From: Bradyrhizobium sp. CCGB01
GTDB lineage: Bacteria > Pseudomonadota > Alphaproteobacteria > Rhizobiales > Xanthobacteraceae
NCBI RefSeq assembly: GCF_024199795.1
Contig: NZ_JANADK010000001.1
Coordinates: 6,882,001 to 6,946,000, forward strand
Reading direction: 5' to 3'
Length of the DNA stretch: 64,000 nucleotides
Within the stretch, counting starts at the first letter, position 1; each line of letters begins with the position of its first letter. Position numbers and translations under genes: made by a program. The notes under the pieces were generated by a model. That model was not told the DNA's origin, did no database searches, and saw only the letters and a program-made list of their open reading frames with translations. Below, in pieces: positions 25,742-64,000 of the stretch.

Positions 25742-25764
25742 GAAAGCTGCGCTCCGCTCGCGCT

Positions 25765-34919: not shown

Positions 34920-37900
34920 TCACTCCGCCGGTTCAGTAACCGTATCCTGCGCGATCGTCGACGCCGCCGCCGGCACGAGCAGGCCGCAGATCTCATCGAG
35001 CAGGCCGATATCCTTCAGAATTGTGAAATGGTTGTCGCCTGCGACACCGCGATCGATGGCCGTCGGCAGTTGCAGTTCCAGCCGATCGCGCTGCGCCACG
35101 CGGACCGACGTCCACCAGCAGAGCGGCGTGGCTTCGAGGCCGCGCGGCAGCGTGGCGTTCTGCGCCAGCCTGTTGAGATGCCGTCCGACCGCGAAGGCGG
35201 CGGACAGGTCGTCTGCGCCGAGCAACGCGTCGTCGGCCTGCACCCTCCGGCCCTGCTCCAGAACAGTCGCCACCAGATCGCGGATGTTCTCCGGCGTCTC
35301 CCGCAGGTCAGCGCGTTTCGCTGCCTCGACCTGCGCATCGATGCGAAAGGCCGCCGCGTTCGGAAGAACCGCCGACAGCAATCCGGCGAGATCATCGACC
35401 CAGTGGGACATCGTCTCTTGCCGGCTCGATCCATCCCGCTGCCGCGGCACGAAGCTGTCGACCATCGCAAGACGATCGACGCGCTCGCCGCCGCGTTCGA
35501 GATCGGCTGCGACGAGGCTGGCCAGAAGCCCTCCCAGCGACCAGCCGACCAGGCTGTAGGGGCCCCGCGGCTGCATCCGCCGGATCTCGGTCGCATAGTC
35601 CATCACCATCGCTTCGAGCGAGCTGTCGGTCCACGAACTGTCGACCAGCATTCTCGACTGCAGCCCGATCACCTGGCGGTGTCCTTCGAGGCGGCGCGCC
35701 AGCGGCCCATAATCGAAGACCGTGCCGAAGCCGCCATGCACGCAGAACACCGGATTGAGGCCGCGAACCACGGCATTCAGCGGCAGCAACGCCGATGGCG
35801 CCGCCGCAACGGCGGACGCCGCGGTGGCGTTGCCGGCGAGCAGCGCACGGATCGTCGGCTTCTGAAGCAGATCGCGCAGCTTGATCTCGATTCCGAACGT
35901 CTTGTCCTGACGGAGCCGCGCCACGACCTTGAGGCACAGAATCGAATTGCCGCCCAGCTCGAAGAAATTGTCGGTGACCCCGACCTCCGGCACTTTCAGA
36001 ATTTCGGACCACAGGCGGGCCATCGCGATCTCTGCCGGGCCTCGCGGCGCGACGAAGCTTCGCAGCGACGCGTCGGGAGCCGGCAACGCACGGCGGTCGA
36101 TCTTGCCGCTCGACAATGTCGGCAGTCGCTCCAGCACCATGATCCGCGCCGGCACCATATAGGCCGGCAGGATCTGCTTCAGGAAGGCGATCAAACGCTC
36201 GACCAGGCTCGCGGCTGCATCGGGCGTGGCGCCGCCTGCCGCCTTCGGCGCGACATAGGCAATGAGCTGATTTCCGGCTGCGCCCGGCACTGCCACAACC
36301 GCGGCTTGTGCGATCGCCTCGTGACGAAGCAGCGACGTCTGGATCTCTCCGAGCTCGATCCGGAAGCCGTTGACCTTGACCTGGTCGTCGCTGCGGCCGA
36401 GATATTCGACGATGCCGTCTTCGCGCCATCGCGCCAGGTCGCCGGTGCGGTACAGCCGGGCGCCCGGCACCGCCGAGAACGGGTCAGGCACGAAGCGCTC
36501 CGCGGTCATGCCGGCCTTGCCGTGATAACCGCGCGCCAGCCCGAAGCCTCCGAGATAGAGCTCGCCTGCGACACCGGCGGGAATGATGTCGAGCGCGCCA
36601 TCGAGAATGTAGGCGCGGCGGTCACCGACCGGAACGCCGATCGGCGCATATGGCGTGTCGCATTCGGACGCGCCGTCAACCTTCCAGACCAGGGGTGTGA
36701 CGACGGTTTCGGTCGGGCCATAACCATTGATCAGGATGCGCGGCTTGAGAACGCGCCTGACCTTGTCGAAGCCCGCCTTCGGCATCGCCTCGCCGCCGAA
36801 CGAGTAGAGCTTGACCGGCGGCGGGTTGCCGCTCTGCTCGACGTGCTCCGCGACCTGCTGGAGATAGGCCGGCGGCAATCCGATATGGCTGACGCGATGG
36901 GCGTGCAGGTTTTCGACGGTCTGCTCTGGCGTCCACAATTCGGCGTCACGCATCAACAGCCGCGCGCCATGCGACAGGACCGTCAGCCAACGCTCATGGG
37001 CGCCGTCGAAGGCCAGCGACAGGAAGTGCAGTTCGCAGGAGCTTTCGTCGATCTCGTAGAGGCTCCCGGTGACGTGACAGTGCATCGCCAGCGGCCCATG
37101 GGCGACGGCGACGCCCTTCGGCGTCCCCGTCGAACCCGAAGTGTAGATCAGATAGGCCAGGTTTTCAGGATGCAACTCGGGTTGCGGCGGATGGCCGGGT
37201 CCCGCGTCGAAATCGAACGTGGACAGCGCGATCCTTTCCACACCATCCGGGCTGCCCCCGATCTCGAGCCGTCCCGTCAACAGGAACGCGATTGCGGCAT
37301 CGCGCATGACGAATGCATGCCGCTCGGATGGCAGCTCAGGATCAAGCGGAACGTAAGCCCCGCCTGCCTTGAGCACAGCCAGCAACGCGATCATCGTGAT
37401 CTCAGATCGCTCGACCACGACGCCGACGCGCTGCTCGGGTTTGAGCCCGCGGGCGATCAGGTGATGGGCCAGACGATTGGCCCGGCGCTCAAGCTCTCCG
37501 AACGAGAGCACTGTGCCGCCGATGGTCAGGGCCGTCCGCCCCGGATGACGCTGCGCGTGGCCGCTGATCGCCTCGTGCACCAGCGGCAGCGGAGCACTTG
37601 ACGTGGCGTTACGATTGCAGCGTTCGGCAAGCGCAGCGTCGGCGTTCGTGACGGGATCGATGCCGCCAAGCAGAGCCGTGGCGTCCCGCGTCAGCGCCGC
37701 CAGCAAATGCTCGAACTGCGCCTTGATCTGCGTGGCCTGCGCCCCGGTGAAATGGCTCGGCATATAGGTGTATTCGACTTGAAGCGTGTCTTCGACCAGC
37801 ACCGACAGGTCCATCGGGTAGTTCGTCACGTCAACATTCCGCAGGTCGCTGAACTGCAATGCGCCCGCGCCGCGATGCATGCTGCGTTCGATCGGATAGT

Positions 37901-40900
37901 TCTCGAAGACGATGATGCTGTCGAACATCGTCTGACCGGCGCGGCCGGCCCAGCCCTGGATGTCATAGAGCGGTGTATGCTCGTAATCCCGGATCGCCGA
38001 ATTGCGGTCCTGCAGCGCGCGCAGCCATTCTCCGATAGAGCTGGCGGACGGAAGCGTTTCGATCACGGGCAGCGTATTGATGAAGAGCCCGAGCATCTGC
38101 TGCGATCCGTCGAGACTGGCCGGACGACCGGCCACCGTCACACCGAAGGTCACGGTGTTCTGGCCCGTATAACGCTGTAGCAGCAGCGCCCACACGCCCT
38201 GGACGATGGTGTTCAACGTGATCCGCTCGCGGCGCGCGAACGCCTTCAGCTCCGCGGTCGCCGTCTCTCCGAGACGCGTGTAGCAGCGTTCGTGGCCGGA
38301 TACCTGATGGCGGCGCGCGCCGAAGGCGTCGGCCAGCTGCGTCGGCTGGTCGAAGCTCTTGAGCTGCTCACGCCAGAAAGCTTCGGCTGCCTTGGCATCC
38401 TGCGCCAGCAGCCAGGCGATGTAGTCGCGGTAGCGCGTCGCGTTCGCCGTAGGCGTGCCGCCGTAATAGCACTCCAGGACTTCTCCGACGAACCTGGCTG
38501 AACTCCAGCCGTCCATCAGGATGTGATGATAGGTCCAGATCAGCCGATATAGGTCGTCCTGCAGCCGCAGCAGCCGCACCCGCTGTAGTGGCGGTGCCTG
38601 AAGATCGAACTCGGCGGCGCGCTCCTCGGCAAGGGCAGCGGCAATCCGTTCGTCGCCGATCTCCTGCCCGCGCCAGTCGTCCTGCTCGAACGGCACGACG
38701 ATGTCGCGATAGACGGCTTGCAGTGGAGAGCCGGAGAGCTCGCGCCACAAGAAGCCGGTTCGTAGCATCTGATGACGCGCGCTCACCTCACGCCATGCCG
38801 TGTCGAGGCGTCCCGGATCGAGGCCCCGGATCTCGACGCTGACCTGGTTGACATAGACGCCGCTGCCGGCATCGCGCAGGCTATGAAACAGCATGCCCTG
38901 CTGCATCGGCGACAACGGATAGACGTCCTCGATGCGGCTCAAGTCCAGACCGAGCCGCTCGAGCTGCTCGCCGGACAGCCCCGAGAGCGAGCCACGTTGT
39001 GAGGTCGCGTCGTCCTTGCCAGGGCCGACATCGCGGGACGCCGCCGCCAGTGTTTCGATGGTCTGATGCCGGAAGACATCGCGCGGCTCGATGAGCACGC
39101 CTTCGCGCCGCGCGCGGCTCACCATTTGCAGCGAGATGATCGAATCGCCGCCGAGCTCGAAGAAATTGTCGGTGACGCCGACTTTGGGCTGGCGCAGCAG
39201 ATCGGCCCAGATCGCGGCCAGCGCCGCCTCGGCCGGCGTGCGCGGCGCGACATGCTCGACGGACGCCGCGAGCTGATCCGGCGCCGGCAGCGCCTTGCGG
39301 TCGATCTTGCCATTCGGCGTCAGCGGCAGGCGATCCAGCACCGCGATCCGCGCCGGGACCATGTAGTCCGGCAGCACCGCGGACAAGGCCGCCTTGAGCG
39401 CGGCCCCATCCAACGCTTCGCCGCTGACATAGCCGACCAGCTGGCGGCCGGTGCCGGCCTCGCGCGCCACCACCACGGCCGCGCGCACACCTTGCTGCCC
39501 CAGAAGCTGCGCCTCGATCTCGCCGAGCTCGATGCGGAAGCCGCGGATCTTCACCTGGTGGTCGGCGCGGCCGACATAGTCGAGCACGCCGTCGGGTCGC
39601 CACCGCGCCACGTCGCCGGTGCGGTACAGCCGCGCGCCCGCTGGACCGAACGGATCGGGGATGAAGCGCTCCGCCGTCAGCCCGCCGCGCCGCCAATAGC
39701 CGCGCGCCAGCCCCGCTCCGCCGATATAGAGCTCGCCGGCAACGCCGACCGGCGCCAGGTTGAGATCGCCGTCGAGAATGTGCAGCGTGGTGTTACCGAT
39801 CGGGCCGCCCAGCAGCGGACGATCGTTCGCCTTATCGAGCCGGTGACGGGCCGACCACACCGTGGTCTCGGTCGGACCGTACAGGTTCCAGACCTCGCCG
39901 GCCTGCCCCACCAGCCGCCGCGCCAGATCCGGCGGCAGCGCCTCGCCGCCGCACAGCACCCGGCAGCTTGCCGGCAGCGAGCGACCTTCCTGATCGAGCA
40001 GCATCCGCCAGGTCGATGGCGTTGCCTGGATCAAGGATACGCCGTGCCGCTCCACGATCGCCTTGAGCTTGACCGGATCCTGCGCCGCCGCACGATCCGC
40101 CAGCACCACGCAGGCGCCGATCGTCAGCGGCAGCCACAGCTCCAGGACCGCGATGTCGAAGGACAGCGAGGTCAAGCCGAGCACGCGGTCGGCGGCCGTC
40201 ATGCCGGGCTGCTCCGCCATGGTCGCCATGAAATTGGTCACCGCGTGGTGGCGGACCATCACGCCCTTCGGCAGGCCGGTCGAACCGGAAGTGTAGATCA
40301 CATAGGCGAGGCTCTCGGCGTGAACGGCGACATCGAGATTGCCGGCATCGCCACCCTCGCCGTCCTGCCCGTCGAGCAGCCAGGCCTCGGCGCCGGTCTC
40401 CTCCAGCACCGCGGCGAACTGATCGCGCAATTCCTTCTGCGTCAGCACCAGCGCTGCGCCGCTGTCGCGCAGCATGTGCGCCAGCCGTTCCGGCGGGTAA
40501 TCCGGATCGAGCGGCAGATAGGCCCCGCCGGCCTTCAACACGGCCACCAGAGCAACCAGCATCTCGACGCCCCGGTCGAGCGCCAGCCCGACCACGACGT
40601 CGGTCCCGACGCCGTGATCCCGCAATCGCCGCGCCAGCCGGTTGGCACGCGCGTTCAGCGCGGCGTAACTCAGCTCCGTCTCGCCGACCACCAGCGCTAT
40701 CGCTTCGGGTGACTTCCGGACCTGCGCCTCAAATTGCGCGACGATTCCCTTGCGCAGCTGGTCTCGTCGCGTGTCGTTCGCCCGTGCGAGGAGGACGTCA
40801 TCCGTGGGATCGCAGGCCGCAATCGCGCCGACCGGTCGATTGGCATCGATGCTCAGTGCTTCGATCAGCCGCACAAAGGCGCGCTGTAGCCGCGCGATCT

Positions 40901-43900
40901 GCGCCTCATCAAAATGCGCGCGCTGATAGTTGAAGACGAGACGCAGACGCTCATCGACGCCGACACTTGCGAACAGCGGATAATTGCTGGTCTCGACGAT
41001 CCGGGTCTCACCCACCTGGATCTGCCGGTTCTTTCCGATCAGTGCGTGGTCAACCGGGTAATTCTCGAACACCAGGATGCTGTCGAACAGCGGCCGTCCG
41101 GGGCGTCCTGCCAGGCGCTGGATTTCGTAGAGCGGCGTCGAGCCGAATTCGCGCAGGGCCAGATTGCAATCCTGCAACTCGCGCAGCCATGCCCCGACAG
41201 TCTGCTGCGGGCTGACGTCGTCGACGACCGGCAACGTGTTGATGAACAAGCCGACCATCTCTTCAGCGCCGGCGAGCTCCGGCGGCCTGCCCGACACGGT
41301 GACACCGAAGCAAACCCTGCCCTGCCCGGTATGCTGCCGCAGCAACTGCGCCCATGCCGCCTGCACCAGCGTATTCATCGTGATGCGCTCGCGCACCGCA
41401 AATTCCTGCAACCGTCCGGTCACGGCAGGATCCAGCTCCAGCGCAAGCATGCCGTGGCCGGATGATTCCGCGCCCGTTGGTTCAGCCAAGCCGCCCGCCA
41501 GGAAACTCGGCTCGTCCAGCCCAGCCGTCGCGTTGCGCCAGAACGCCGCCGATGCGGCGCCATCACGGTCCTTCAGCCACGCGATGTAGTCGCGATAGCG
41601 GTGCTGCAACGCCGGCAGACGTCCCTCGCCGTTGTGCTGCATCACCTCGGCGATCAACCGCGCCGAGCTCCACCCGTCGAGCAGGATGTGATGGTGCGTC
41701 CAGATCAGCCAATGCCGGTCTTCGCCGAGCCGGATCAGCCGGACCCGCTGCAAGGGCGGCCGTGACAGGTCGAATCCTGCGGCCTGCTCCTGCCGCGAGA
41801 CGTCCGCCAGCGCCGCGTCTAGTTGGGCCTGGTCCCACCCCACAATCCGCGTCCGCCAATCGTCCTCGGTAAAGGGCACCTCGGCCCGCCGATAGACGAT
41901 CTGTTGCGACGCGCCGGACAGGTCACGCCAGACGAATCCCGTCCGCAGCACCGCATGGCGATCGCTGGCCGCCTGCCAGGCGCGGTGTAGCTTTCCGGCA
42001 TCAAGGCCGTGGATCTCCGCGGCGACCTGATTGACGTAGACCCCGCTCTCGCCGTCGTGCATCGCGTGGAACAACATGCCCTGCTGCATCGGCGACAATG
42101 GATAGATGTCCTCGATCTCGCGCCAGTCGAGCGCAAGCCTGTCGAGCTCGACCTGATCGAGTCCCGACAACGCCACGTCTGATGGCGTCAGGCCGCAGGC
42201 GCCGCCGGTGCAGTGTTCGACCAGCTCGCGCAGTGCAGCCTCGTACAACGCGGCCAGTCGCTCGACCGTCTCGCGCCGATAGCGCTTGCGACCGAAGCCG
42301 AACGACAGCCGCAACCGGCCATCGCGCACCGTGCCGTTCACGCTCAGCCAGCGTCGTAGCACGCTCGATGCATCGCGCGACGGACCGGCGCTTTCCGCTG
42401 CCATCGTAAACAGCGCGGCCTCATCGTCACCGCCGTCGATCTGGCCGAGATAGTTGAAGGCAATCTTCGGCTCACTGAGGTTCGACAGCGCCATGCGTTG
42501 CTCTTCGGAGCCGAGATGCCGCAAGACACCATAACCCAGCCCGCGGTCGGGAATCCCGCGAAGCTCCTCCTTCACGGTCTTGATCAAGAGCGAGGACTCT
42601 TGCGAGCCGCCAGCCAGCCGCACGGGAAAGGCCGTCGTGAACCAGCCAACCGTGCGCGAGAGGTCAAGATCGCCGGACAGGTGCTCGCGGCCATGACCTT
42701 CCAGCTCGATGAGAACGTCATCCTGCCCGCTCCACCGCCAGACGGCGCGTGCAAGGCCAGCAAGAAGAAGATCATTGATCTGCGTGCGATAGGCTGACGG
42801 CGCATCCCTCAGCAGGCGCTGCGTCCATTCGCTTTCGAACGACAGCAGGACCTCATCGGCATCCGCAATGCGATCGATGCCCACATGATCGTCATCGCAT
42901 GGAATATCCGCATTCGCACCGCGGCCGATCCAATAGGACAGTTCCGTCGCCAGTTCGGGCAACGTTGCGTAGGCTCGCAAGCGCTGTCCCCACAGCGCGT
43001 AGGCGTGGCTCTTCGGCGGAAGTGCAACTGTGGTGTCGCCTCTGGCAAGCTGCGTGTACGCAGAAGCGACGTCGTCTAGCAGAATTCGCCATGACACACC
43101 GTCGACCACCAGATGGTGGATCACGATCAAGAATCGCTGGCTGCCGTCGGAGAGATCGATGCCGACCGCCCGCAACAGCAATCCGCTGGAAATCGACAGG
43201 CTTTCCTGCGCCGACGACGCCAGTGCCGTCACGGCCTCGCGGTCAACCGCCCGCCGGACCCAGAGCAGCGCGTCCGCGGCCGGAGCAGCACCGTGCTCGG
43301 CACGCCAGCCCCCCTGGCTCTCCTCGAAGCGAAGGCGCAGCGCGTCATGATGATCGATCACGGCGGCGAGCGCGCGCCGCATCACGTCCCAGTCGAGGCG
43401 ATCCTTCGGCTGCAACAGCACCGCCTGGTTCCAGTGATCGCGATGTCCTGTGTCTTCGGCAAAGAAGCGGGACTGAATCGGCAACAGCGGATGCGGGCCG
43501 CTGACCTGCCCCTGATCGGCGAGCGTCCCGGTGCGCTGCTCGGTTCGAGCCGTGAGCGCCAGCGCTTCCAGCGTCTGATGCTGAAAGACGTCGCGGGGCT
43601 CGATCAGATATCCGGCGCGCCGGGCGCGGCTCACCATCTGGAGCGAGATGATCGAATCGCCGCCGAGCTCGAAAAAATTGTCGGTGAGGCTAACGGCCGA
43701 CCGGCCGAGCAGCACGGCCCAGATCGCCGCAAAGGCCATCTCGGCCGGCGTGCGTGGCGCCTGATGCTCCGCATCCCCATGGGCCACGTCGGGAGCCGGC
43801 AGCGCATGGCGATCCACCTTGCCGCTCGGCATCAGGGGCAGCCGCTCCAGCACCGCGATTCTCGGCGGCACCATGTAATCGGGCAAGACGGCCGAGAGCG

Positions 43901-46900
43901 CCGTCCGCAGCGTTGCCTCTTCCAATTCACGCGTGCCGCTGACGTAGCCAACGAGCTGGCGGCCGGCGCCGACCTCGCGCGCCACCACGACTGCCGAGCG
44001 AACGCCGGGCTGCTCGAGCAGCCGCGCCTCGATCTCGCCGAGCTCGATGCGGAAGCCGCGAATCTTGATCTGGTGATCCCCGCGCCCGACATAGTCGATC
44101 GCGCCATCGGCGCGCCAGCGCGCCAGATCTCCCGACCGATAGAGCCGCTCGCCGGTCTCGCCGAAGGGATCGGGAATGAAGCGCTCCGCCGACAGCTTTT
44201 CGCGCCGCCAATAGCCCCGCGCCAATCCAGCCCCACCTATGAACAACTCGCCGGTGACGCCCGCCGGAACCATGTTCAGATCGGTGTCGAGAATACGAAT
44301 CGTCACGCCGGGAATGGGCCGTCCGATCGGCACGCGCGCGGCACCCTCGTCACGACAGTTCCAGTAGGTGGCGTTGATCAGCGCTTCGGTCGGACCGTAG
44401 CGATTGTCGAACCGTACATTGGGGAACGCCGCAAGCACGCGCGTCATCAGTTCGAGCGACAGCGCCTCGCCTCCGGCAAACAGGCGCTTGAGCGAGGTGC
44501 AGCGTGTCGCGCCGGGCTCGGTCACAAAATGCTCGAGCATCTGCGGCACGAAATGCAGCGTCGTCACGTCGTGCGCGATGACGGCGTCCACCAGAAGCCG
44601 CGGCTCGCGATGCGTCCCCGGAGCCGCGATCGCAAGCCGCGCGCCGATCACCAGCGGCCACAGAATCTCCCAGACCGAGACGTCGAAGCTGAACGGTGTC
44701 TTGTGCAGCAAGGTCTCATCGACATCGAGGCGATATTCCGCTTGCATCCAGCCGAGCCGAGCCGCGAGCGCGCGATGCGAGCAGGCGACGCCCTTGGGCA
44801 CACCGGTCGACCCCGACGTGTACATGACATAGGCCAGGCTGTCCGGATGAAGTGACGCATCTAGATTGCCGGCGAGCCCCTCGATGCCAGATACGTTCTC
44901 TCCATCGATGGACCAGGCCTCAGTGCCCGCATCCGCGATCACTGCCTCCAGACGCGGGAGCAGCCGTTCCTGGGTGAGCAACAGGGCTGTTCCACTGTCG
45001 CCCAGCATGTGAAGGAGGCGATCGGACGGATAGTCAGGATCGAGCGGCAAATAGACGCCGCCGGCCTTCAACACGGCGAGGACGCCGACGATCAGCTCGA
45101 CGCTGCGCTCGATCGCTATTCCGACCAGCCGGTCACGACCGATCCCGTGGTCTCGCAGCCGCCACGCCAGCCGATTGGCGCGTGCATTCAGTTCGCCATA
45201 GCTGATCTGTTGGTCACCGAAAACCAATGCGATCGACGATGGCGAGGCCGCAGCACGGGCCTCGATCTGCGCGACGATGCTGTCGCCAAGCTTCGGCGTC
45301 CTCTCGACGCTGCCAGTCCAGCCGAGCACCTTCCGCATCTCGTCCGCATCGAGGCTGTCGAGTGCGCCAAGCGGCCGCGACGCGTCAGCCACGATCCGGG
45401 CCAGCAGCCGCGACAGCGAGGCTTGCAGATACCTGATCTGGTCGTCATCGAAGCGACCGCGGTCGTAGCGAAAACCCAGATTGATGCCCTCCGACTTGGC
45501 GAACACCGCGACTGTCAGCGCATAATTGGTGATCGAGATCTGCTCGACCCGGCCGAACTGGCGTCCGCTTTCGTTCTCGCCTCGCAGCGCCTGATCGATC
45601 GGGTAGTTCTCGAACACGAGGATATTGTCGAACAGCGCGCGCCCGGAGCTGCCGGCAAGACGCTGAATATCATAGAGCGGCATCCAGCCGTGATCGCGCA
45701 AATCCGTGTTACGCGCCTGGAGGTCACGCAGCCATGCTCCGACTTCGGCTTGCGGGCTTGTCTGTTCGACGACGGGCAGCGTGTTGATAAACAAGCCGAC
45801 CATGTCCTCGGCTCCGCTGATCTCGGCCGGCCGGCCCGATACCGTCGCGCCGAAACAGACCGCGCGTTGGCCGGTGTGACGACGCAGCAGCCGCGCCCAC
45901 GCGCCTTGCACCAGCGTGTTCAGCGTGACGCGCTCCCGCCTGGCAAATGCTTGCAGGCTTGCCGTCAGGTCGGCCGCGAGGAGCAGGTCCAGCGAGCCGT
46001 GGCCAGACGCTCCCCTCCTGGCCGGTCCTCCCAGCGTGTCTGCGAGAAAACTGGGCTCCTCCAATTCTGCCAATGCGGAGCGCCAGAACGCCGTCGACAC
46101 ATTGCGGTCTTGCTTTTGCAGCCACTCGATGTAGTCGCGATAGCGGCCCGTTACGGACGGCAAGCGCTCGCCGCGCTCGTGCTGCAAGATCTCGGCCATC
46201 AGACGTGCCGCGCTCCAACCGTCGAGCAGGATATGGTGATGCGTCCAGATCAGCCAGTGGCGTGCGTCGTCGAGCCGGATCAGCCGCACCCGCTGCAGCG
46301 GCGCGCGCGCCAAGTCGAATGCTTGGTCGCGATCAGCTCGCGAGACGCGTGCCAGCGCGGCCCGGAGCTCTTCGTCGTCCATGGAGGCGGCCTGCGCGCG
46401 CCAGTCTTCTTCCTCAAATGGCAGATTCGCAGAGCGATAGACCACCTGCTGCGCCGCCCCCGACAGTTCGCGCCAAGCAAATCCGGTTCGCAACACGGCG
46501 TGCCGCGCGCTGACCTCGTGCCAGGCTGCGCGCAGCCTGCCAGCATCGAGGCCGCGGACCTCCAGGCCGATCTGATTGACGTAGTTGCCGCTCTCGCCAT
46601 CACTCAGAGCGTGGAACAGCATGCCCTGCTGCATCGGCGACAACGGATAGATATCCTCGATCTCACGGCAGTCGATCGTCGCGACCAGCGCGTCGAGATC
46701 ACCCTGGTTCAGGTCCGACAACGCGAAGTCCGAAGGCGTCACGCCGCGCGCGCCACCCGTGCAGTGGTCGACCAGCTCGCGCAAGGCCGCAGCGTAATGC
46801 TCCGCGAGACGTTCGATCGTTGTCCGCCGGTAACGCCGGCGGCCATAGCTGAACGACAGGCGCAATTGCCCTTCGCCGACTTGGCCGTTGATGCTCACCC

Positions 46901-49900
46901 AGCGACCAAGCGGCGCGCTGTCGCTGCGCGACGGTCCGGAGCTCTCTGGCGCGAGCCGGAACGGCGCGCCCTCACCCATGCTGGAATCGAACTGGCCGAG
47001 ATAGTTGAAGACGATGCGCGGCTCGGGAAGCGCCTCCAGCGCGCTACGCTGCACCTCGGTGCCGAGATGGCGCAGGACGCCGTAACCCAGCCCGCGGTTG
47101 GGAACGGCGCGAAGCTCCTCCTTGACGGATTTGATCAGCGCGGCGGCGTCACCGGAGCCGCCCGGCAGGCGCACCGGAAAAGCCGTGGTGAACCAGCCAA
47201 TGGTGCGGGACACGTCCACGCCCGCGAAGATGTCCTCGCGACCATGCCCTTCGAGCTCGACGACGACATCCTCAATTCCGCTCCAGCGCGAGACCGCTCG
47301 CGCAAGCGCGGCCAGCAGGAGATCATTGACCTGAGTGCGATAAGCGGATGGCGCTTCCTTCAGCAGCCGCGCGGTCAATCCCGCGTCGAATGCCAGCAGA
47401 ATTTCCTCACCGTCGGCAACCCTGTCAACGCTGCCATGATCATCGTCGCAGGGAAACTCGGCACGTGATTGACGTTCCAGCCAATAGCCGAGCTCGGCCG
47501 CCAGCTCATCGGCACCGCCATAGGCGTGCAACCGCGCGCCCCAAGATGCATAGGGCTCGCTCCTCGCCAGTGCGACCGCGGCCGCACCTTGGCGGAGCTG
47601 ATTGTACGCCGTCGCAAAATCTTCGAGCAGCACACGCCATGACACGCCATCAATGACGAGATGATGCACCACCACCAGAAGCCGCTGGCTGCCGTCCGCA
47701 AGGTCCATACCGACCACACGCAGCAGCGGTCCGGCCAGCGAGAGGCTGGCCTGAGCTTCAGAAGCAACTTTCGTGACCGCGACAGCGTCGCAGACGTCGC
47801 TGCGAATCCAGAGCAGCTCCGATGTCGCCAGCGGCGAGCCATGGGTCGCACGCCAGACGCCATCCATCTCCTCGAAGCATAGGCGCAAAGCCGCGTGATG
47901 AGCCACAAGGGCATCGACCGTGCGTTCGACAAGTCTCCAATCGAGCCGCGACTTCGGCATCAACAGAACCGCCTGGTTCCAATGATGGCGGTCCCCCGCA
48001 TCCTCGCCAAAGAACCGCAACTGGATCGGCAGCAGCGGATGCTCGCGGCCCTCGATATCGAGCTCTGGGGCGACATCTTCCGCCCTGCCTTCGCTGCGCG
48101 CCACGCGCGCCAGATCCTGCAAGGTCTGATGTCGAAAGACGTCTCGCGGCTCGATCAGCAGGCCCGCCTGGCGGGCGCGGCCAACCAGTTGCAATGAGAT
48201 GATGGAATCGCCACCGAGCTCGAAGAAATTGTCCTCGACACCGATGACGGGCTGGCCGAGCAGCTCGGCCCAGATCGCGGCGAGCACCGTCTCGGCCGCC
48301 GAGCGCGGCGCGACATGTGCGGCGGTTGCGGTGGGTGTCTCGGGCGCTGGCAGGGCGTCGCGATCCACCTTGCCGTGCGCCGTAAGCGGCAGCCGCTCGA
48401 GCCTGACGATCCGGGCCGGCACCATGTAGTCGGGCAGTTCGTCCGAGAGTGCCGCACGCATCGCCGTTTCGTCGAACAGACCATCGCCGGCAACATAGCC
48501 GACCAATTGCCGGCCGACGCCGGCTTCGCGGGCGATGACGACGGCCGACTGCACGCCGGACTGCCGCATCAGCCATGCCTCGATTTCGCCGAGCTCGATC
48601 CGGAAGCCGCGGATCTTCACCTGGTGATCGGAGCGGCCGACATATTCGATCACGTCGTCGGCGCGCCATCGCGCCAGATCGCCAGTACGATAGAGCCGAG
48701 CCCCCGGCACACCAAAGGGATCGGGAACGAAGCGCGCGGCCGTGAGCTCGGCGCGCCGCCAATAACCGCGCGCCAGTCCCTCGCCGCCGATGAACAGCTC
48801 GCCGGTCACGCCGACCGGAACGATGTTGAGATCACTGTCCAGAATGTAGGCCGAACGACGGCCGACCGGACGACCGATCGGCGCGTAATTGCCATCGATC
48901 TCCTCGCTGGCATCGACTTTCCAGACCAGCGGCGTCACCACGGTTTCGGTCGGGCCGTAACCGTTGATCAATGTCCGCGGCCTGAGCGCACGCTTGACCT
49001 TGTCGAAGCCTGCCTTGGGCATCGCCTCGCCGCCGAACGAGTAGAGCTCCACCGGTGGCGGATCGCCACGCCACATCGCGAAGTCGGCGAGCTGTTGCAG
49101 GTAGGCGGGCGGAAATCCGGCGTTGGTGACGCGCTGCCGACGCAGAACATCGATGGTCTGCTCCGCCGACCACAAATCGGCATCGCGCATCACGAGCGTT
49201 GCACCGCAGGTCAGCGCGGTCCAGAGCCGCTCATGGGCACCATCGAAGGTGAAGGACAGGAAGTGCAGCTCGCGCGACTGCCGGTCCATGTCGTAGAGCC
49301 TGGCCGTCACCTCGCAATGCATCGCGAACGGACCGTGCTCGACCGCGACACCCTTGGGGATGCCGGTGGAGCCGGAAGTGTAGATCACATAGGCAAGGCT
49401 GGTCGCGGCCACCGCGATCTCCGAATCGCTTTCGCTCTCCCGGGCGAGGTCGATCGCATCGAGCGGGACGACCTCGATGCCGGGTGGCGGCGGCGCCAGT
49501 GCCGAGCCATCCGCGTCAACCAGCACGACACGCGCACCGGCATCGCGCATGGTGCCGACCTGCCGCCTCACGGGATGCTCGGGATCGAGCGGCAGATAGG
49601 CGGCACCCGTCTTCAAAATGGCGAGCAGGGCCACAACGAGATACGGCGAGCGTCGTGCCGAGACGCCGACGAGATCGGAATGCCTGACGCCCAGCCGCAA
49701 CAGATAGTGCGCGAGCCGATTGGCGCGACGGTTGAGCTCGGCATAGGTGATTTCATCATCGCCGAAGACCAGCGCCGGCGCGGCGGGCGTTTCGGCCGCC
49801 AGCCGTGCGACCGTCCGGTGCACCGGCGTGAACGGTGTGCTTGTCGTTCCACCATCCGCATCGTTCCATTGGCGCAGCCTCTCCAGCTCCTGTTCGGAGA

Positions 49901-51362
49901 GCAGCGCCACATCGGCGATGGATTGCGTGTCGTCAGTGACCATCGCCTTCAGGATCGTAGTCCAGTGCGCGGCAAGGCGCTCGATCGTCGCTGCCTCGAA
50001 CAGCGCCGTCGCATAAGTGAAGATCGCGCGAATTTCGCCCGACGGCCCCTCGTCGGTGTCGAGCGCGAGGTCGAACTTGACCGTATCGACGTCGGCGTCG
50101 ATCGTCTCGATCTGGAGGCTGGTGCGATCCGGCGGATGGCCTGACGCCCGACGGCGCTGGTGATTGTAGAGGACCTGGAAGAGCGGATTCTGGCTCAGGC
50201 TGCGCGCGGGCTGGTGGATCTCGAGCAGTCGCTCGAACGGAAGATCCTGGTTTTCCTGTGCCTCGATCGTGGCCGCATGGACCGCCGCGATGAGGTCCGC
50301 GATCCCAATGCGGCCGTCGATCTGCGTGCGAAGCACCTGGGTGTTGACGAACAAGCCGATCAACCCGCGCGTTTCATCGCGGTGCCGATTGGCCACGGGC
50401 ACGCCGATGTTGATATCGGATTGACCGGTGTAGCGATAGAGCAGCAGTTTGAAGCTCGCCAGCAAGACGACGAACAGCGTCGTGCGGTGTCGCCGCGCCA
50501 GAGCGCGCAAGCCATCGGCCAGCACCGGATCGAGCGGGATGCGGCGTGCCGACCCGGCAAGATCCGGGACCGCCGGCCGCGCCCGGTCGATCGGCAGCTG
50601 GAGCACGGCCGGATCGGCAAGGCGCTTGGTCCAGTAGTCGGCCTGCCGCGTGCCGTCGACCGCGCTCATCCAGAGCCGCTGCCACTCGGCGTAGTCGGCA
50701 TAGTCGATCTCTGGCTCCGGCAGGACCGGTGTTTCGCCGCATGCAAATGCCGCGTACAGCTTCCAGAATTCGTCGACCAGAACGCCCATCGACCAGCCGT
50801 CGGTGACGATATGGTGCAGGCTCACGACGAGGATGTGGTCGCCCTCGTCCAGCGTCAGCAACGCCACGCGCATGAGCGGGCCGGCTTCGAGATCGAACGG
50901 CAGCGAGGCTTCCTGCCGCGCCAGCGAACGCGCCTGCGCTTCGCGGTCATCGCCGTTGAAGGTCACATAGCGCACCGCGACCGGTTGCGGCTCCCCTATG
51001 AATTGTTCGGCTATCTCGCCTTCCTGCCGAAACACGGTGCGAAGCGCACTATGGCGGGCGACCAGTGCATCGAACGCCTGTTGCAAGGCGCGCGGTTGCA
51101 GCGTGCCGCGCACGCGCACCGTCGCCGAGATGTTGTAGGCGGCGCTGCCCGGATCCATCCGCCAAAGAAACCAGAGGCGAGATTGTGCAAAGGACAGCGG
51201 CGCCCGCTTCCGCTCCTGGTGCACGATCGGCAGCATGGCGAGATTGACGCCCTTCGCTGCGAGCTGCGACAGGAATGCGTGCTGCTTGCCGGCATCGAGG
51301 CGCATGAGCCGCCGTGAGACGTCGCGCAGCTGCTGCTTTTGCGTGGTTGCCGTGTCACTCAT
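34920..51362 (-). CDS. Four-module NRPS with terminal thioesterase (NRPS C)
   Basis: A 5,480-residue synthetase ending the assembly line. Approximate domains: C1 45-480, A1 497-1010, T1 1020-1085, E1 1100-1550, C2 1565-2010, A2 2030-2520, T2 2535-2600, E2 2620-3070, C3 3080-3520, A3 3541-4020, T3 4045-4110, C4 4144-4580, A4 4604-5095, T4 5105-5170, TE 5200-5440 (elbow GWSLGG). Hand-read ten-residue codes: A1 and A4 DGEGSGGVTK (N5-hydroxyornithine-like), A2 DVWHFGRINK (Ser-like, unsure), A3 DILQLGLVWK (Gly). E domains keep HHLVxDGVSW. T3 has the GGDSIISLQ form of carriers that feed E domains, but no E follows. A3 is part of a block identical to one in NRPS B. It overlaps the NRPS B stop by 8 bases. 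Confidence 0.96.
39142..40744 (-). repeat. Copy 1 of a 1,603-base identical A-T block (in NRPS C)
   Basis: Line-by-line comparison shows this stretch identical to 51551-53153 at a constant offset of 12,409 bases; no mismatch was found. It spans from just before the A3 domain to the Ser codon of the T3 GGDS motif, and identity stops inside that codon on one side and after [12 protein letters not shown] on the other. Confidence 0.95.
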
Positions 51363-54300
51363 CGGACAGTTCGACTTCCTTCAACATATCGAGCATCGCG
51401 GCAATGTCGCCGCTCCGCTTATCGGTTTCGCCCTCCAGGCCCAGCCCAGCCGCCATGGTTTCAACAGTCGTCATTTCGAACAGACGGTTGAGCGGCAGAT
51501 CGTGGCCGAGATCGCGCTTGATGCGGCTGACGAGCTGGACGGCGATCAGGGAATCGCCGCCGAGCTCGAAGAAATTGTCGGTGACGCCGACTTTGGGCTG
51601 GCGCAGCAGATCGGCCCAGATCGCGGCCAGCGCCGCCTCGGCCGGCGTGCGCGGCGCGACATGCTCGACGGACGCCGCGAGCTGATCCGGCGCCGGCAGC
51701 GCCTTGCGGTCGATCTTGCCATTCGGCGTCAGCGGCAGGCGATCCAGCACCGCGATCCGCGCCGGGACCATGTAGTCCGGCAGCACCGCGGACAAGGCCG
51801 CCTTGAGCGCGGCCCCATCCAACGCTTCGCCGCTGACATAGCCGACCAGCTGGCGGCCGGTGCCGGCCTCGCGCGCCACCACCACGGCCGCGCGCACACC
51901 TTGCTGCCCCAGAAGCTGCGCCTCGATCTCGCCGAGCTCGATGCGGAAGCCGCGGATCTTCACCTGGTGGTCGGCGCGGCCGACATAGTCGAGCACGCCG
52001 TCGGGTCGCCACCGCGCCACGTCGCCGGTGCGGTACAGCCGCGCGCCCGCTGGACCGAACGGATCGGGGATGAAGCGCTCCGCCGTCAGCCCGCCGCGCC
52101 GCCAATAGCCGCGCGCCAGCCCCGCTCCGCCGATATAGAGCTCGCCGGCAACGCCGACCGGCGCCAGGTTGAGATCGCCGTCGAGAATGTGCAGCGTGGT
52201 GTTACCGATCGGGCCGCCCAGCAGCGGACGATCGTTCGCCTTATCGAGCCGGTGACGGGCCGACCACACCGTGGTCTCGGTCGGACCGTACAGGTTCCAG
52301 ACCTCGCCGGCCTGCCCCACCAGCCGCCGCGCCAGATCCGGCGGCAGCGCCTCGCCGCCGCACAGCACCCGGCAGCTTGCCGGCAGCGAGCGACCTTCCT
52401 GATCGAGCAGCATCCGCCAGGTCGATGGCGTTGCCTGGATCAAGGATACGCCGTGCCGCTCCACGATCGCCTTGAGCTTGACCGGATCCTGCGCCGCCGC
52501 ACGATCCGCCAGCACCACGCAGGCGCCGATCGTCAGCGGCAGCCACAGCTCCAGGACCGCGATGTCGAAGGACAGCGAGGTCAAGCCGAGCACGCGGTCG
52601 GCGGCCGTCATGCCGGGCTGCTCCGCCATGGTCGCCATGAAATTGGTCACCGCGTGGTGGCGGACCATCACGCCCTTCGGCAGGCCGGTCGAACCGGAAG
52701 TGTAGATCACATAGGCGAGGCTCTCGGCGTGAACGGCGACATCGAGATTGCCGGCATCGCCACCCTCGCCGTCCTGCCCGTCGAGCAGCCAGGCCTCGGC
52801 GCCGGTCTCCTCCAGCACCGCGGCGAACTGATCGCGCAATTCCTTCTGCGTCAGCACCAGCGCTGCGCCGCTGTCGCGCAGCATGTGCGCCAGCCGTTCC
52901 GGCGGGTAATCCGGATCGAGCGGCAGATAGGCCCCGCCGGCCTTCAACACGGCCACCAGAGCAACCAGCATCTCGACGCCCCGGTCGAGCGCCAGCCCGA
53001 CCACGACGTCGGTCCCGACGCCGTGATCCCGCAATCGCCGCGCCAGCCGGTTGGCACGCGCGTTCAGCGCGGCGTAACTCAGCTCCGTCTCGCCGACCAC
53101 CAGCGCTATCGCTTCGGGTGACTTCCGGACCTGCGCCTCAAATTGCGCGACGAACGACCCCAATTCCAGATATTGCGCCTGCGTCCGATTCCACGTCTCC
53201 AGCAAAAGCTGGCGCTCCTCGGGAGGCAGAATGTCGAGTTGTCGGACCGGCGTGCGCGGCGCATGTTCCAGCACCTCCGCCAATTGATCGAGTGCCTGCT
53301 GCATCAACGCGCAGATACGATCAGCCGAGAGCGGAGGGACGACCTGAGCGGTCAGACCAAGTGCCTGACCATAATCCTCGACGGCCAGCATCAGGGGGTA
53401 ATTGGTGCGCTCTTCGCCTCCGAGCCATTCGATACCGGAGCCACCACTGTCGGCGGTCAAATCAACCGGCATTGCATTATGCCGATAGTTCAGAATCGAG
53501 CTGAACAGAGGCGCCGACGCCGCGACGCCGCTGCATCGTTGCGCAAGCGCCAAAGAGGCGTGCTCGTGCGCCATCAGCTCGGTCAGCCTATTATGCGCAT
53601 CACGAACACTGTCTTCGACCGCCGTATCATCGAGATCGAGCCGCAGCGGCAAGGTGTTGATGAACAAGCCCATGGTGCGATCGCCGCCGGCACCGGCCTG
53701 CATGCGACCGAACAGGACGGTCCCGAACACGACGTGCTCGCGCCCGCTGGTTCGCGCCACCACCTGTCCCCAGGCAAGATGGCAAAGGCTGGCGAGGCTG
53801 ACGCCCAACCGCCGCGCCTGGGCACGAAGCCTTGCGCTCAGTTGTTCAGGTAGTATCCGCCGGGCTTCGGTCACGCCGCCACCGTCGCCGTGCACCCGGT
53901 CCAGCCCAAACGGCGTCGTCGGCTCGTCGATGCCGGCGAGCATGCCATGGAAGAAGCGCTCATGCTCGGCGGTGGCCGCCGATCCGCGCGCCTGCGCCAC
54001 CAGATTCCGGAACGGATATGGCGGCGGCAACTCGTGGCTCCGCCCGGACAAGATCTTCCCGACCTCGTCGTGCATCACCTCCAGTGTGGAGTGGTCGCCG
54101 ATCAGGTGATGCAGCAGGACCAGGAGCAGCCAGCGCCCTCGGTCAGGATCGGCAGCGACTGCAAATCGCAGCAGCGGCGGCTGGCCGAGATCGATCCGAT
54201 GGAAACGCGGATCGAATCGTCGCGCGAGTTGCTCATCGGCGGGGCCTTCGCCATCCAGCACGACCTCGCTGACAACCAAGGGAGCCTGCCGCCAGACCAC

Positions 54301-57300
54301 CTGCGCCGGCGTGGACAGTCCATTCCACACAATGGACGTTCGCAGAATGTCGTGGCGGCTCACCACCTGCTGAACCGCGTCGAGATAGCGATCGAGCAGA
54401 TCGCGGCTGGCAAATGCCATCCTGCCGACCAGCAGATATGGATCTCCCTCCTTCGACAGCAGATGGTGAAAGAGGATACCATCCTGGAGCGGCGACAGGC
54501 CGTAAATGTCCTGGATGTTAGCGACACCGCCGGGAACTCCGGCCACGATGGTGTCGATGTCGTATTGCGTTAGCGCGATCAGCGGCAACAATTCGGGCGT
54601 GATTGCCGTCGCCTGCCGCGTGATCTGGTTAGCTGGAACGTCGGCTTCTCTGCCGCCATCGAGGCCAGCAGCAAAATCGGCCAGCACCGGCTTTGCGAAC
54701 AGCGTGCGCGCGTCCGCACTGAGTGCATGCCGCTGCAACCGCTCCAGCATCCGGACCGCAAGCAACGAGTGGCCACCGAGCTCAAAGAAGTGGTCGGTGC
54801 GTCCGATCCGATCGACGCGCAACAGCTCGGCCCAGACGTTCGCGACGATCTGCTCAACATCGCCTCGCGGTGGCTCGAAGCGGCGCCGCCCGTACGCATC
54901 GTCCTCCGGCGCCGGCAGCGCCTTGCGGTCGATCTTGCCGTTCGGCGTGAGCGGCAGTGCATCGAGGCGCACAAAGGCTGACGGCACCATGTAGTCCGGC
55001 AGGCGCGCACGCAGGTGATCGCGCATCGCGCAGGCAAATTCACCGGCGTTGAGCCCCGCACCGTCCCCGCGACGCGCGGCCACATAAGCGACCAGTCGCG
55101 AGTCGCCGCCGGGATGCCGGTGCACCAGCGCGATGGAGTCGGCCACGTCGGCGTGCTCGTTGAGACGAAACTCGATCTCACCGAGCTCGATGCGGAAGCC
55201 GCGGATCTTGACCTGATGGTCGTTGCGGCCGAGAAACGCGATATTGCCATCGGGCAAGTAGCGCCCGAGATCGCCGGTGCGATACATGCGCGCGGCAGCA
55301 TCGCGGTGGAAGGGATCGCGCACGAAGCGCTCCGCCGTCAGGTCGGCGCGGTTGAGATAGCCGCGCGCAACTCCGGCTCCACCGATCCAGATTTCACCCA
55401 CCGCGCCGAGAGGAACGGGCACGCCGAACCGATCCAGAAGATAGATCCGCGCATTTGGCAGCGGTCGACCGATCGGAGCAGCGTCGCCATCGAAGCCCGG
55501 AGGCCGCAGCCAGCTCGTGGCGCAGACCGTTGCTTCCGTCGGCCCGTAACCGTTGAAGACGGCGACGCCAGCAGGCAATCCCTTGATCAGCTCGGCCCTG
55601 GGCAATTCACCGGCAAGGACAAGAACCCGCAGAGAGGCAAGTCGGTCGAGATCGGTCCGCCCGTGCAGCATCGCCGGCGGCAAGGTCGCATGCGTAATCT
55701 CGTTGTCCGCAAGGAAGCCGAGCAATTCCGAAGTGTTCTGATGCTCTCGCGAGCCCGCCAGAAACAGCGCGGCGCCCGAGCACAGCGCCATGACGATTTC
55801 CCAGATGCTGGCATCGAAGCTGAACGAGGCAAACTGCACGACGCGGCTGTGCGAATTGACGTCAAATAGCGCCCGTTGCGCCAGCGCCAGATTCACCAGG
55901 CCACGGTGCTCGACCATCACCCCCTTCGGCCGGCCGGTCGAGCCGGACGTATAGATAATGTAAGCGAGGTTTCGCGAGGTCAGTCCCTGGACGAGGTCGC
56001 TTGGATCCGGTGTCGCCTGCGCCGTGACGGCGGATGCATTCGCCTCCGGATCGACGATCTCACAGGTCCCATCCAGGAAAATCGCTCTTCTCGCTTCGTC
56101 AGCGATCAGCACCTTCGGCTTGGCATCATCGACAATCTGACGCAGCCGCTCCGCTGGATAGGCGGGATCGAGCGGCAGATAGGCACCGCCCGCCTTCAGC
56201 ACGGCCAGCAGGCTCACCACCATGGCAATACCGCGCGGCAGACAGATTGCGACGGGCTGATCCGGCACCACACCCAAGGCCATCATGCGCCGCGCAAGCC
56301 GGCTCGCCCTGGCATCGAGGTCGCCATAGTTCAGGCAAACGCCCTCGTGCACCAGGGCGACGGCCTCCGGCGTTCTTCTCATCTGCTCCGCAAACAATTC
56401 ATGAATGCAGCGCTCGGAGGGAACCGGTGCTGCGGTCTCGTTCCATGTATCGAGAACGCGGTTGCGCTCTTCCGCACCAACGATATCGATCCGCTCGACC
56501 GCCTGGTCCGCATCAGCAACCATGGCCCGCAGCAGGACCAACAGGTAGTCCCGGTGGCGCCTGATCGTCGTCTCGTCAAACAGCGCCGTCGCATAGTTCA
56601 AGGACCCGACGATACGTCCGTCCAGCTCGCCCAGACCAAGCTCGAGATCGAACTTGACCTGCTGGAGCGGGATATCGGCGACCTCGGCCTTGAGGCCGGG
56701 CAGCTCGAGGGCCCCCGTTTCGTTGCTCTGCCAGGCGAACACGACTTGAAAGACCGGCGTCTGCTCCAGCCCTCGCAGCGGCTGGGCGATCTCGACGACC
56801 TGCTCGAACGGCAGATCCTGATGATCCTGCGCGGCCAGCGCCGCGGCGCGCACGCGACGGAGCAGTTCGGCGACGCTGGGCCCAGCCGAGAGATCGATGC
56901 GGACGGCCAGCATGTTGACGAAGAACCCGATCAGGCCCTCGATCTCGGGTCTGTTTCGATTTGCGGTCGGCGTACCGATCACGATGTCCGTCTGCCCGGA
57001 GAGCCTTGATAGCACCGCCGCCCAGGCCGCCAGCACCGTCATGAATGAGCTGGCGCCGAGCGATTGGCCCAGCCGCCGGATGCCGGATACCAACTCCGCA
57101 TCGATATCGATCGGCAGAGATGCGCCTGCGAGCGACCTGACCGGCGGACGCGGCCGATCCGTCGGCAATTCGAGCATGGCCGGGGCATCCGCGAGCGCCT
57201 CCCGCCAATAGTCAACCTGCCGCTGCAATCGCTCGCCGCGAAGCCATTGCCGCTGCCAGGCGGCATAGTCGGGATACTGGATTGCCAATGGCGGCAGGAA

Positions 57301-57924
57301 ATCGTCCTTGCCGGCGACGAAGGCCCGGTAGAGACCACCCAGCTCGCGTATGATCACACCGATCGACCAGCCGTCGGAGACGATGTGATGCTGGGTGAGC
57401 AGGAAGAGATGTTCCCGCTCCTCCGTCCGGATCAGCCGGCCGCGGATCAACGGTCCCGCGGCGAGATCGAACGGCATCGCAGCCTCCTCGCGGCAGAGGC
57501 GCGCGAGCTCCTGCTCGCGATCGTCCCGGCCGCGCAGATCGTGTTCGAGCAGCGGCACGCGTTCATGCGCGGGCAGCAGCATCACGTGCGGCTGTTCGTC
57601 GATCATGCGAAAGACGCTGCGCAGCGCTTCGTGGCGCGCGAACAAACGGTCGATGCTCCGACGCAGCGCCTCGACATCGAGCACACCCGAGAGCCGCAAT
57701 GCTCCGCGAATGTGATAGCTCGAATTGGCACCATCGAGTTGCGCCAACAGCCAAAGCCGCTGCTGCGCAAAGGACATCTCGAGTGATCCGTCGCGCGCCA
57801 CCACAGGAATCGCGGTGGCACCGCTCCTGTCGGCGTTCCGGCCGCGGTCTCTGGCGAGCGAGACGAGCTTTCTCATCTGCGCGGGATCCAGATCTCGCAA
57901 GCTCGGTTTTGCCGTGTCGGCCAT
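51355..57924 (-). CDS. Two-module NRPS (NRPS B)
   Basis: About 2,190 residues: C1 40-470 (HHIVSDGWS), A1 490-1000, T1 1025-1085 (GGHSLLAV), C2 1138-1560, A2 1593-2085, T2 2100-2160, then a short C-terminal tail rich in acidic residues, probably a docking end. Hand-read codes: A1 DAWTVAGVCK (Phe/aromatic-like, with GELP in place of GGEA), A2 DILQLGLVWK (Gly). C2 has HHLIGDHS, a His in place of the usual Gly of HHxxxDG. ATG 57924 has a GGAG eight bases upstream; GTG 57930, overlapping the NRPS A stop, is the longer alternative. No E domain is present. A2 to the T2 serine is the second copy of the identical block. Confidence 0.95.
51551..53153 (-). repeat. Copy 2 of the 1,603-base identical A-T block (in NRPS B)
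   Basis: Same sequence and orientation as 39142-40744. Left limit: the last shared base is inside the phosphopantetheine Ser codon (TCC here, TCG in copy 1). Right limit: the shared part ends after the codons for VAQFEAQ. Flanks differ completely, so this is a clean replacement of a functional unit. Confidence 0.95.
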
Positions 57925-57926
57925 GC

Positions 57927-63900: not shown

Positions 63901-64000
63901 ACCGGCAGGCTCGATAGCTCTTCACGCGCGGCTTCCGCTTCCACATCGAGCACCAGGCCACCGAGCCCGCGCGCTTCGGCCAATGCCTCACCCGCCGCCA
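57927..64000 (-). CDS. NRPS A, N-terminal part beyond the window
   Basis: At least 2,020 residues; the frame is open to the right edge, so the true start is outside. Domains by position: A1 from the edge to about 62860 (already inside the domain), T1 around 62670 (GGDSILSL), E about 62480-61150 ([10 protein letters not shown]), C about 61100-59800 ([10 protein letters not shown]), A2 about 59700-58250, T2 around 58100 (GGHSLLAV), and an acidic tail. Hand-read codes: A1 DLTKIGHVGK, close to the published Asp code; A2 DIEFIGAIAK, not assigned. The E domain predicts D-Asp. The stop at 57927 overlaps the GTG alternative start of NRPS B. No aspartate beta-hydroxylase domain is visible in this part. 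Confidence 0.95.

What the first reader, a model, noticed from the sequence alone, without database searches (positions are those of the whole stretch)
39142..53153. Identical 1,603-base A-T block shared by two NRPS genes: a natural adenylation-domain swap
39142-40744 (NRPS C module 3) and 51551-53153 (NRPS B module 2) match at every base compared, while flanks on both sides diverge at once. The edges are functional: one lies just before the A domain, the other inside the codon of the phosphopantetheine serine (TCG versus TCC). Perfect identity including third positions implies very recent gene conversion or duplication. It places the same Gly-type code in two modules and shows where nature cuts an NRPS.
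Basis: seen in the sequence. Interest (0 to 1): 0.88.

Follow-up and report, generated by a model that had tools for sequence, protein, structure and literature searches.

The report
Two NRPS glycine blocks kept identical
Two distant stretches of a bacterial peptide-making enzyme's genes are letter-for-letter identical because they keep being copied over one another, apparently independently in many related species; the same kind of copying is already known from a cyanobacterial toxin synthetase.

Summary
In detail: 39142-40744 and 51551-53153 are identical over exactly 1,603 bases and the flanks drop to about 40% at once. The edges lie a few residues before the A domain and inside the phosphopantetheine-serine codon. 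The reading "very recent A-domain swap" is half right. The same two blocks with the same edges occur in all 30 Bradyrhizobium genomes compared, and the pair is also in a Nitrobacter, so the swap is old. In the block tree the two copies of one genome are sisters in 27 of 30 (one of these at support 34), while the condensation domains in front of them sort by position. Four control module pairs never show this (0 of 30 each). This is concerted evolution: repeated gene conversion between two modules with one Gly-type code, caught here just after a complete conversion. A second single-contig genome, G195, has its own identical pair, 86% like this one. The kind is known: mcyB1/mcyC of microcystin synthetase (PMC2174460) and concerted evolution of NRPS A domains (PMC4256081). 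The cluster probably makes a hydroxamate siderophore. Reads were not available.

The parts
39142..40744 (-). Block copy C: A domain plus first half of the T domain of NRPS C module 3 (code DILQLGLVWK, Gly-type)
   Evidence: exact 1603-base identity to copy B; Pfam AMP-binding, AMP-binding_C, PP-binding; code
51551..53153 (-). Block copy B: A domain plus first half of the T domain of NRPS B module 2 (same code)
   Evidence: Pfam; code
39141..39143 (-). Phosphopantetheine-Ser codon of copy C (TCG); the shared block ends at its second base
51550..51552 (-). Phosphopantetheine-Ser codon of copy B (TCC); the shared block ends at its second base
40809..42095 (-). Condensation domain before copy C (C module 3), not shared with gene B
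   Evidence: Pfam PF00668; position-sorted tree
53200..54500 (-). Condensation domain before copy B (B module 2; approximate limits), active-site motif HHLIGDH
   Evidence: Pfam PF00668 in gene B; motif and identities; tree
37600..38934 (-). Condensation domain of C module 4 (approximate limits), like the C domains that follow E domains, directly after copy C with no E domain between
34920..51362 (-). NRPS C, 5480 aa: C-A-T-E, C-A-T-E, C-A-T, C-A-T-TE
51355..57930 (-). NRPS B, 2191 aa: C-A-T, C-A-T
57927..64000 (-). NRPS A, runs past the window end (3269 codons incl. stop, to window-equivalent 67733 on L009)
24443..26059 (-). L-lysine/L-ornithine monooxygenase (hydroxamate formation)
   Evidence: PF13434
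23637..24446 (+). 4'-phosphopantetheinyl transferase
   Evidence: PF01648
28875..30068 (+). Siderophore-interacting protein
   Evidence: PF04954, PF08021
30926..32998 (-). FecCD iron-siderophore permease
   Evidence: PF01032
32919..33851 (-). Periplasmic binding protein
   Evidence: PF01497

Best explanation
A block made of one A domain and the first half of a T domain, with a Gly-type code, came to sit in two modules of one siderophore NRPS before Bradyrhizobium and Nitrobacter diverged. Since then the two direct repeats, about 12.4 kb apart, have kept exchanging sequence by homologous recombination without net loss of the DNA between them (gene conversion). The blocks therefore evolve in concert within each lineage while the sequence on either side evolves by position. 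In this genome the last conversion covered the whole block and is recent. Shown by comparison: the edges, the identity, pairing by genome, position-sorted flanks, the invariant code. Inferred: the molecular step (RecA-type conversion), glycine as the substrate, the direction of the founding swap (gene C into gene B, because the T half in the block has the GGDS motif of the T domains that precede E domains in gene C), and an ancient loss of an E domain from C module 3.
For: Two copies of one genome are sisters in 27 of 30; one clade of all B copies is rejected (p-AU 2e-65, two identical pairs left free). Upstream C domains sort by position with one change, support 100 (30 C rows, 28 B rows). 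Whole-block identity within a genome exceeds both best same-position matches in 26 of 30, and 24 of 30 in each half tested. Controls: C-M1/C-M2, C-M1/C-M3, C-M2/C-M3 0 of 30; C-M1/C-M4, one shared code, 0 of 30. Edges at the same place in 30 of 30. Long exact runs in part of the block in several genomes: 1224 (G129), 993 (G295), 888 (G094); differences clustered, p<0.01, in 13 of 28 non-identical pairs. Third codon positions are homogenised: within-genome divergence is 0.27-0.39 of cross-genome divergence along the block. G195, a single-contig genome, has its own identical pair. Nb-311A copies differ at 4 of 1599 bases.
Against: G176, G214 and G215 do not pair by genome, and G021 pairs with support of only 34. 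G211, G214 and G176 fall below a same-position match in whole-block identity and G215 ties. G275 B and C are 0.811 alike, less than G275_B to G145_B at 0.834. 15 of 28 pairs show no clustering at p<0.01. No fall-off of homogenisation toward the edges was seen, which limited-homology conversion might predict. No recombination was observed directly.
Confidence: 0.9

Rival explanations
1. A single, very recent A-domain swap in this strain only.
For: Exact identity in G000, sharp edges.
Against: Both blocks with the same edges in 30 of 30 genomes; pair also in Nitrobacter; G195 has an independent identical pair.
Confidence: 0.02
2. The exact identity in G000 is an assembly or polishing artefact laid over a truly homogenised but not identical pair.
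For: Repeats of this sort do trouble assemblers: contigs of six genomes end inside the block (G114, G300, G252, G246, G212, G028), and G196 carries a suspicious 12.4 kb tandem repeat.
Against: G000 is one contig; exact or near-exact pairs recur in unrelated assemblies (G195, G212, G129); the graded divergence in the other genomes cannot be made by an assembler.
Confidence: 0.06
3. No exchange: purifying selection for one substrate keeps two old copies alike.
For: The 10-residue code is invariant in 59 of 59 rows with an open frame.
Against: Silent sites are homogenised too: 1611 of 2491 remaining differences are third positions, and within-genome divergence is a third of cross-genome divergence. 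C-M1 and C-M4 share a code yet average 0.638. A third Gly-type block in gene A keeps to 75.5-80.0% in the four genomes measured.
Confidence: 0.01
4. Homogenisation by import: DNA from other strains recombines into the wrong copy, rather than exchange inside one chromosome.
For: Bacterial recombination can use incoming DNA; the pattern would look alike if donors are conspecific.
Against: Donors from other species are not favoured: in 27 of 30 the nearest block is the same genome's other copy.
Confidence: 0.1

Closest known systems
mcyB1/mcyC recurrent adenylation-domain replacement in microcystin synthetase (Fewer et al. 2007, PMC2174460; passages read)
   Same: Two modules of one NRPS system exchange A domains repeatedly; the recombining area spans A1-A10 into the middle of the T domain; A domains become alike within strains while C domains stay positional.
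   Different: There the exchange is tied to altered substrate use and other A domains also come in; here one Gly-type code is kept in every open row, in a siderophore cluster of alphaproteobacteria, and the edges are the same in 30 genomes.
Concerted evolution of PKS/NRPS domains (Medema et al. 2014, PMC4256081; passages read)
   Same: Cluster-specific clustering of A domains, explained by internal recombination.
   Different: There whole sets of domains of a cluster (daptomycin, A54145, CDA); here one pair only, with sibling modules unaffected and exact edges.
A-core exchange as the main mode of natural NRPS diversification (Baunach et al. 2021, PMC8097286; passages read)
   Same: Natural intragenomic exchange of A sequence.
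   Different: Those events tend to keep the native A-sub/T interface; here A-sub and half of T move with the core.
XUT exchange unit, T1/2-C-A-T1/2 (Bozhuyuk et al. 2024; seen only as described in the review PMC11355689)
   Same: A cut inside the T domain.
   Different: The natural unit here is A-T1/2; its other cut is at the C-A junction, not in a T domain.
Wollamide/desotamide Gly A-domain recombination (Booth et al. 2022, PMC9205934; passages read)
   Same: Intragenomic recombination concerning a Gly A domain.
   Different: One event between two clusters that changed the substrate; here recurrent exchange inside one cluster without change of code.

Membership tests
Concerted evolution of NRPS domains by gene conversion | Paralogous copies more alike within a genome than to orthologous positions elsewhere | tested here: met
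   26 of 30 by identity, 27 of 30 sisters in the tree; controls 0 of 30
Concerted evolution of NRPS domains by gene conversion | Flanking sequence keeps its positional history | tested here: met
   one change, support 100
Concerted evolution of NRPS domains by gene conversion | Silent sites homogenised | tested here: met
Concerted evolution of NRPS domains by gene conversion | Discrete conversion tracts (clustered differences) | tested here: inconclusive
   13 of 28 pairs at p<0.01
Concerted evolution of NRPS domains by gene conversion | Exchange seen in the laboratory or in a population | not testable with these tools
   one genome per species held
mcyB1/mcyC-type A-domain replacement | Exchanged unit spans A1-A10 into mid-T without the C domain | tested here: met
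   paper passages
mcyB1/mcyC-type A-domain replacement | Exchange alters the substrate code | tested here: not met
   DILQLGLVWK in 59 of 59 open rows
Gly-activating A domain | Gly-type specificity code | tested here: inconclusive
   code DILQLGLVWK read by motif alignment; its positions and its link to Gly are recalled; no assay
Hydroxamate siderophore NRPS cluster | Orn/Lys monooxygenase, TonB receptor and iron-siderophore uptake genes beside the NRPS | tested here: met
Hydroxamate siderophore NRPS cluster | A hydroxamate product | not testable with these tools
   no chemistry
XUT exchange unit | Both cuts inside T domains | tested here: not met
   3' cut in T, other cut at the C-A junction

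The most novel reading that the evidence does not exclude
The pair is a permanent conversion couple kept by selection and not a neutral by-product: each Gly-type A domain serves as the template that mends the other, so that through the history of Bradyrhizobium and Nitrobacter neither module drifts alone, and the cut at the carrier-protein serine has stayed put because it leaves the downstream T interface of each module untouched.
Probability: 0.15. Interest if true: 0.65.

Novelty: new member of a known kind. Interest (0 to 1): 0.45.

Why it matters
It is a clean, replicated natural experiment: one pair of modules, fixed edges, thirty compared species, sibling modules as controls. It suggests that an A-T1/2 unit cut at the carrier serine goes on working after repeated replacement, which bears on where NRPS genes can be cut for engineering. 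It also warns that identity between modules does not date a domain swap, and that assemblies of such clusters can break or mis-join at these blocks.

Tried and rejected
One-off swap and selection without exchange were tested and rejected; assembly artefact was rejected as the general cause (see rivals). I looked for weaker homogenisation toward the edges and did not find it: within/cross ratio 0.33 and 0.28 in the first two bins, 0.37 in the last, 0.27-0.39 between. I first took the 12.4 kb tandem repeat of G196 for an unequal crossover between the blocks. Aligned, its two units show 71 substitutions, of which 3 lie between columns 2000 and 12500, and many one-base indels that break the reading frames; I think it is probably an assembly artefact, not settled. 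I expected contig ends in drafts to mean identical copies; the three drafts that I could compare in part show 95.2% (1106 bases, G114), 95.3% (685, G300) and 97.8% (971, G252).

Coverage: one search found a match at E<=1e-130 in 42 of 265 genomes of the genus, the window's own included. 30 of the 42 (G000 and 29 others) went into the main comparison. Four with further copies were treated apart (G145, G275, G144; G196), three drafts in part, and G294, G028, G246, G076 and G024 were left out because a full second copy was not on the contigs found or not fetched. In the tree, 2 of 30 B rows were missing (match under 85% of the query). In one search a gap counts as a difference; gap columns are set aside. 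One search used 12 of the 30 genomes plus 19 extra rows. Literature: no paper was read whole; passages of PMC4256081, PMC9205934, PMC12815270, PMC8097286, PMC7486941, PMC12184294, PMC11355689, PMC2174460 and PMC3640908 were seen. A search for Bradyrhizobium with gene conversion and nonribosomal peptide found no paper, and I saw none on this pair in the listings; the library lacks most subscription journals.
Full report
WHAT IS THERE. The two stretches are identical over 1,603 bases and no further. They lie on the minus strand in two neighbouring NRPS genes, B (51355-57930) and C (34920-51362). By motif and Pfam B is C-A-T, C-A-T and C is C-A-T-E, C-A-T-E, C-A-T, C-A-T-TE. The block is the A domain plus the T domain up to the second base of its phosphopantetheine-serine codon; it starts about four residues before the Pfam A domain. 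By sequence the block with its flanks is nearest to solved NRPS modules such as linear gramicidin synthetase A. The window lies in a single contig of 9,317,328 bases. The closest named records are Bradyrhizobium, and the genomes that one search gives as the same genus include contigs of the same lengths as those records (328108 and 8416216 bases).

SURROUNDINGS. An Orn/Lys monooxygenase, a FecCD permease, a periplasmic binding protein, a siderophore-interacting protein and a phosphopantetheinyl transferase stand on one side; TauD, a thioesterase and a TonB receptor on the other, beyond the window. A-domain codes read by alignment are DLTKIGHVGK and DIEFIGAIAK (gene A), DAWTVAGVCK and DILQLGLVWK (B), and DGEGSGGVTK, one beginning DVWHF (read through an alignment gap, not relied on), DILQLGLVWK and DGEGSGGVTK (C). 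A hydroxamate peptide siderophore is the likely product. That DILQLGLVWK means Gly and DLTKIGHVGK Asp is recalled. A 2025 survey reports NRPS-siderophore clusters in 234 Bradyrhizobium genomes, yet detected siderophore from only one of the strains it tested (PMC12815270, passages).

THE KEY TEST. 42 of 265 genomes of the genus, the window's own included, hold a strong match. I cut out the region with both copies from 29 others and compared them with the window. Identity between the two copies of one genome runs from 0.895 to 1.000, median 0.938, 9 of 30 at 0.98 or more. The best match of a copy to the same position in another genome is 0.82-0.94; the within-genome value exceeds both such matches in 26 of 30, ties in G215 and falls short in G211, G214 and G176. 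In a tree of the 60 blocks the two copies of one genome are sisters in 27 of 30, G021 among them with support of only 34; the exceptions are G176, G214 and G215. Holding all B copies together is rejected. The C domains just upstream sort by position with a single change and full support. One stretch of DNA thus carries two histories that switch at the block edge.

CONTROLS. The same comparison for C-M1/C-M2, C-M1/C-M3 and C-M2/C-M3, in two segments each, gives within-genome identity above both same-position bests in 0 of 30; B-C gives 24 of 30 in each segment. C-M1/C-M4, which share a code, give 0 of 30 at mean identity 0.638. In G094, G266, G287, G145, G275 and G144 gene A carries a third block with a Gly-type code (DILQLG followed by LVWK or MVWK). 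These form a clade of their own with one further Bradyrhizobium row, and stay at 75.5-80.0% to B or C in the four genomes measured. Shared specificity alone therefore does not homogenise.

TRACTS. Exact runs between the copies reach 1603 (G000), 1606 (G195), 1554 up to a contig end (G212), 1224 (G129), 993 (G295) and 888 (G094) bases; others are patchy. Differences are clustered beyond chance (p<0.01) in 13 of 28 non-identical pairs and not in 15. Third codon positions hold 1611 of 2491 differences. Zero differences in 1,603 bases, against about 8.5% to the nearest sampled species, puts the last full conversion in G000 within roughly 2% of the time since that split (my estimate, with 3/1603 as upper bound).

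OLD SWAP, OLD E LOSS. Nitrobacter sp. Nb-311A has the pair, with four differences in 1599 bases, at positions 1, 3, 4 and 7. A Hyphomicrobiales MAG (L050) has two such blocks at 84%, sisters in the tree; there the C domain in front of the B-side block is of another kind. In 30 of 30 genomes only 199-208 bases separate the block from the next C domain, against about 1,560 from Ser to the next C motif where an E domain lies between in G000. The C domain of C module 4 is 48-51% identical to the three C domains that follow E domains and 19-30% to the other C and E domains compared. I infer that C module 3 once had an E domain, superfluous once an achiral glycine is loaded, and that the block moved from gene C to gene B. 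This is inference.

EXCEPTIONS. G275 has B and C at 0.811, below G275_B to G145_B at 0.834, so that pair is not homogenised; G145 (0.970) and G144 (0.900) are. One row, G001_B, has an 11-base gap and no open frame.

ARTEFACT CHECK. Contigs of six genomes end inside the block (G114, G300, G252, G246, G212 and G028), as expected of near-identical repeats. G196 has three copies through a 12.4 kb tandem repeat, probably an assembly error. The exact identity in G000 could in principle owe something to assembly; the graded pattern over 30 genomes cannot.

COMPARISON WITH THE KNOWN. Fewer et al. 2007 describe recombination between mcyB1 and mcyC over A1-A10 into mid-T, with homogenised A domains and positional C domains (PMC2174460, passages). 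Medema et al. 2014 describe concerted evolution of NRPS A domains (PMC4256081, passages). Shishido et al. 2013 use the term gene conversion for McyA2 (PMC3640908, passages). Calcott et al. 2020 find recombination hotspots between C and A and on either side of the A pocket (PMC7486941, passages). Baunach et al. [quoted passage not shown] The case is a new, well replicated member of a known kind, and I score it so.

Noticed in passing
L160 17149-17790 and L161 1-860 (Nitrobacter sp. Nb-311A): The A C-terminal part plus half T of C module 1 is 99.8% identical (642 bases) to the block, although its A core is of the module's own type: a partial conversion with a cut at the A core/sub border. The two contigs end there and overlap, so assembly may play a part.
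   Followed up: partly
G196, L146 and L145: Three block copies and a 12.4 kb tandem repeat whose ends coincide with the blocks; many one-base indels inside it suggest an assembly artefact.
   Followed up: partly
window 38934-39141: C module 3 has a T domain of the GGDS type and is followed by a C domain of the after-E type, but no E domain lies between them.
   Followed up: partly
window 53200-54500: The C domain of B module 2 has the motif HHLIGDH in place of HHxxxDG and only 21-31% identity to the other C and E domains compared.
   Followed up: no
L130 (G001), B copy: The B copy has an 11-base gap and no open frame; pseudogene or sequencing error.
   Followed up: no
gene A of G094, G266, G287, G145, G275, G144 (L156, L157, L158, L147, L149, L152): A third A-T block with a Gly-type code, in a separate clade, not homogenised with B and C.
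   Followed up: partly
C modules 1-3 in 30 genomes: The A C-terminal part plus half T is much more alike between modules (72-74%) than the A core (51-58%), as if that sub-unit had also been exchanged in the past.
   Followed up: no
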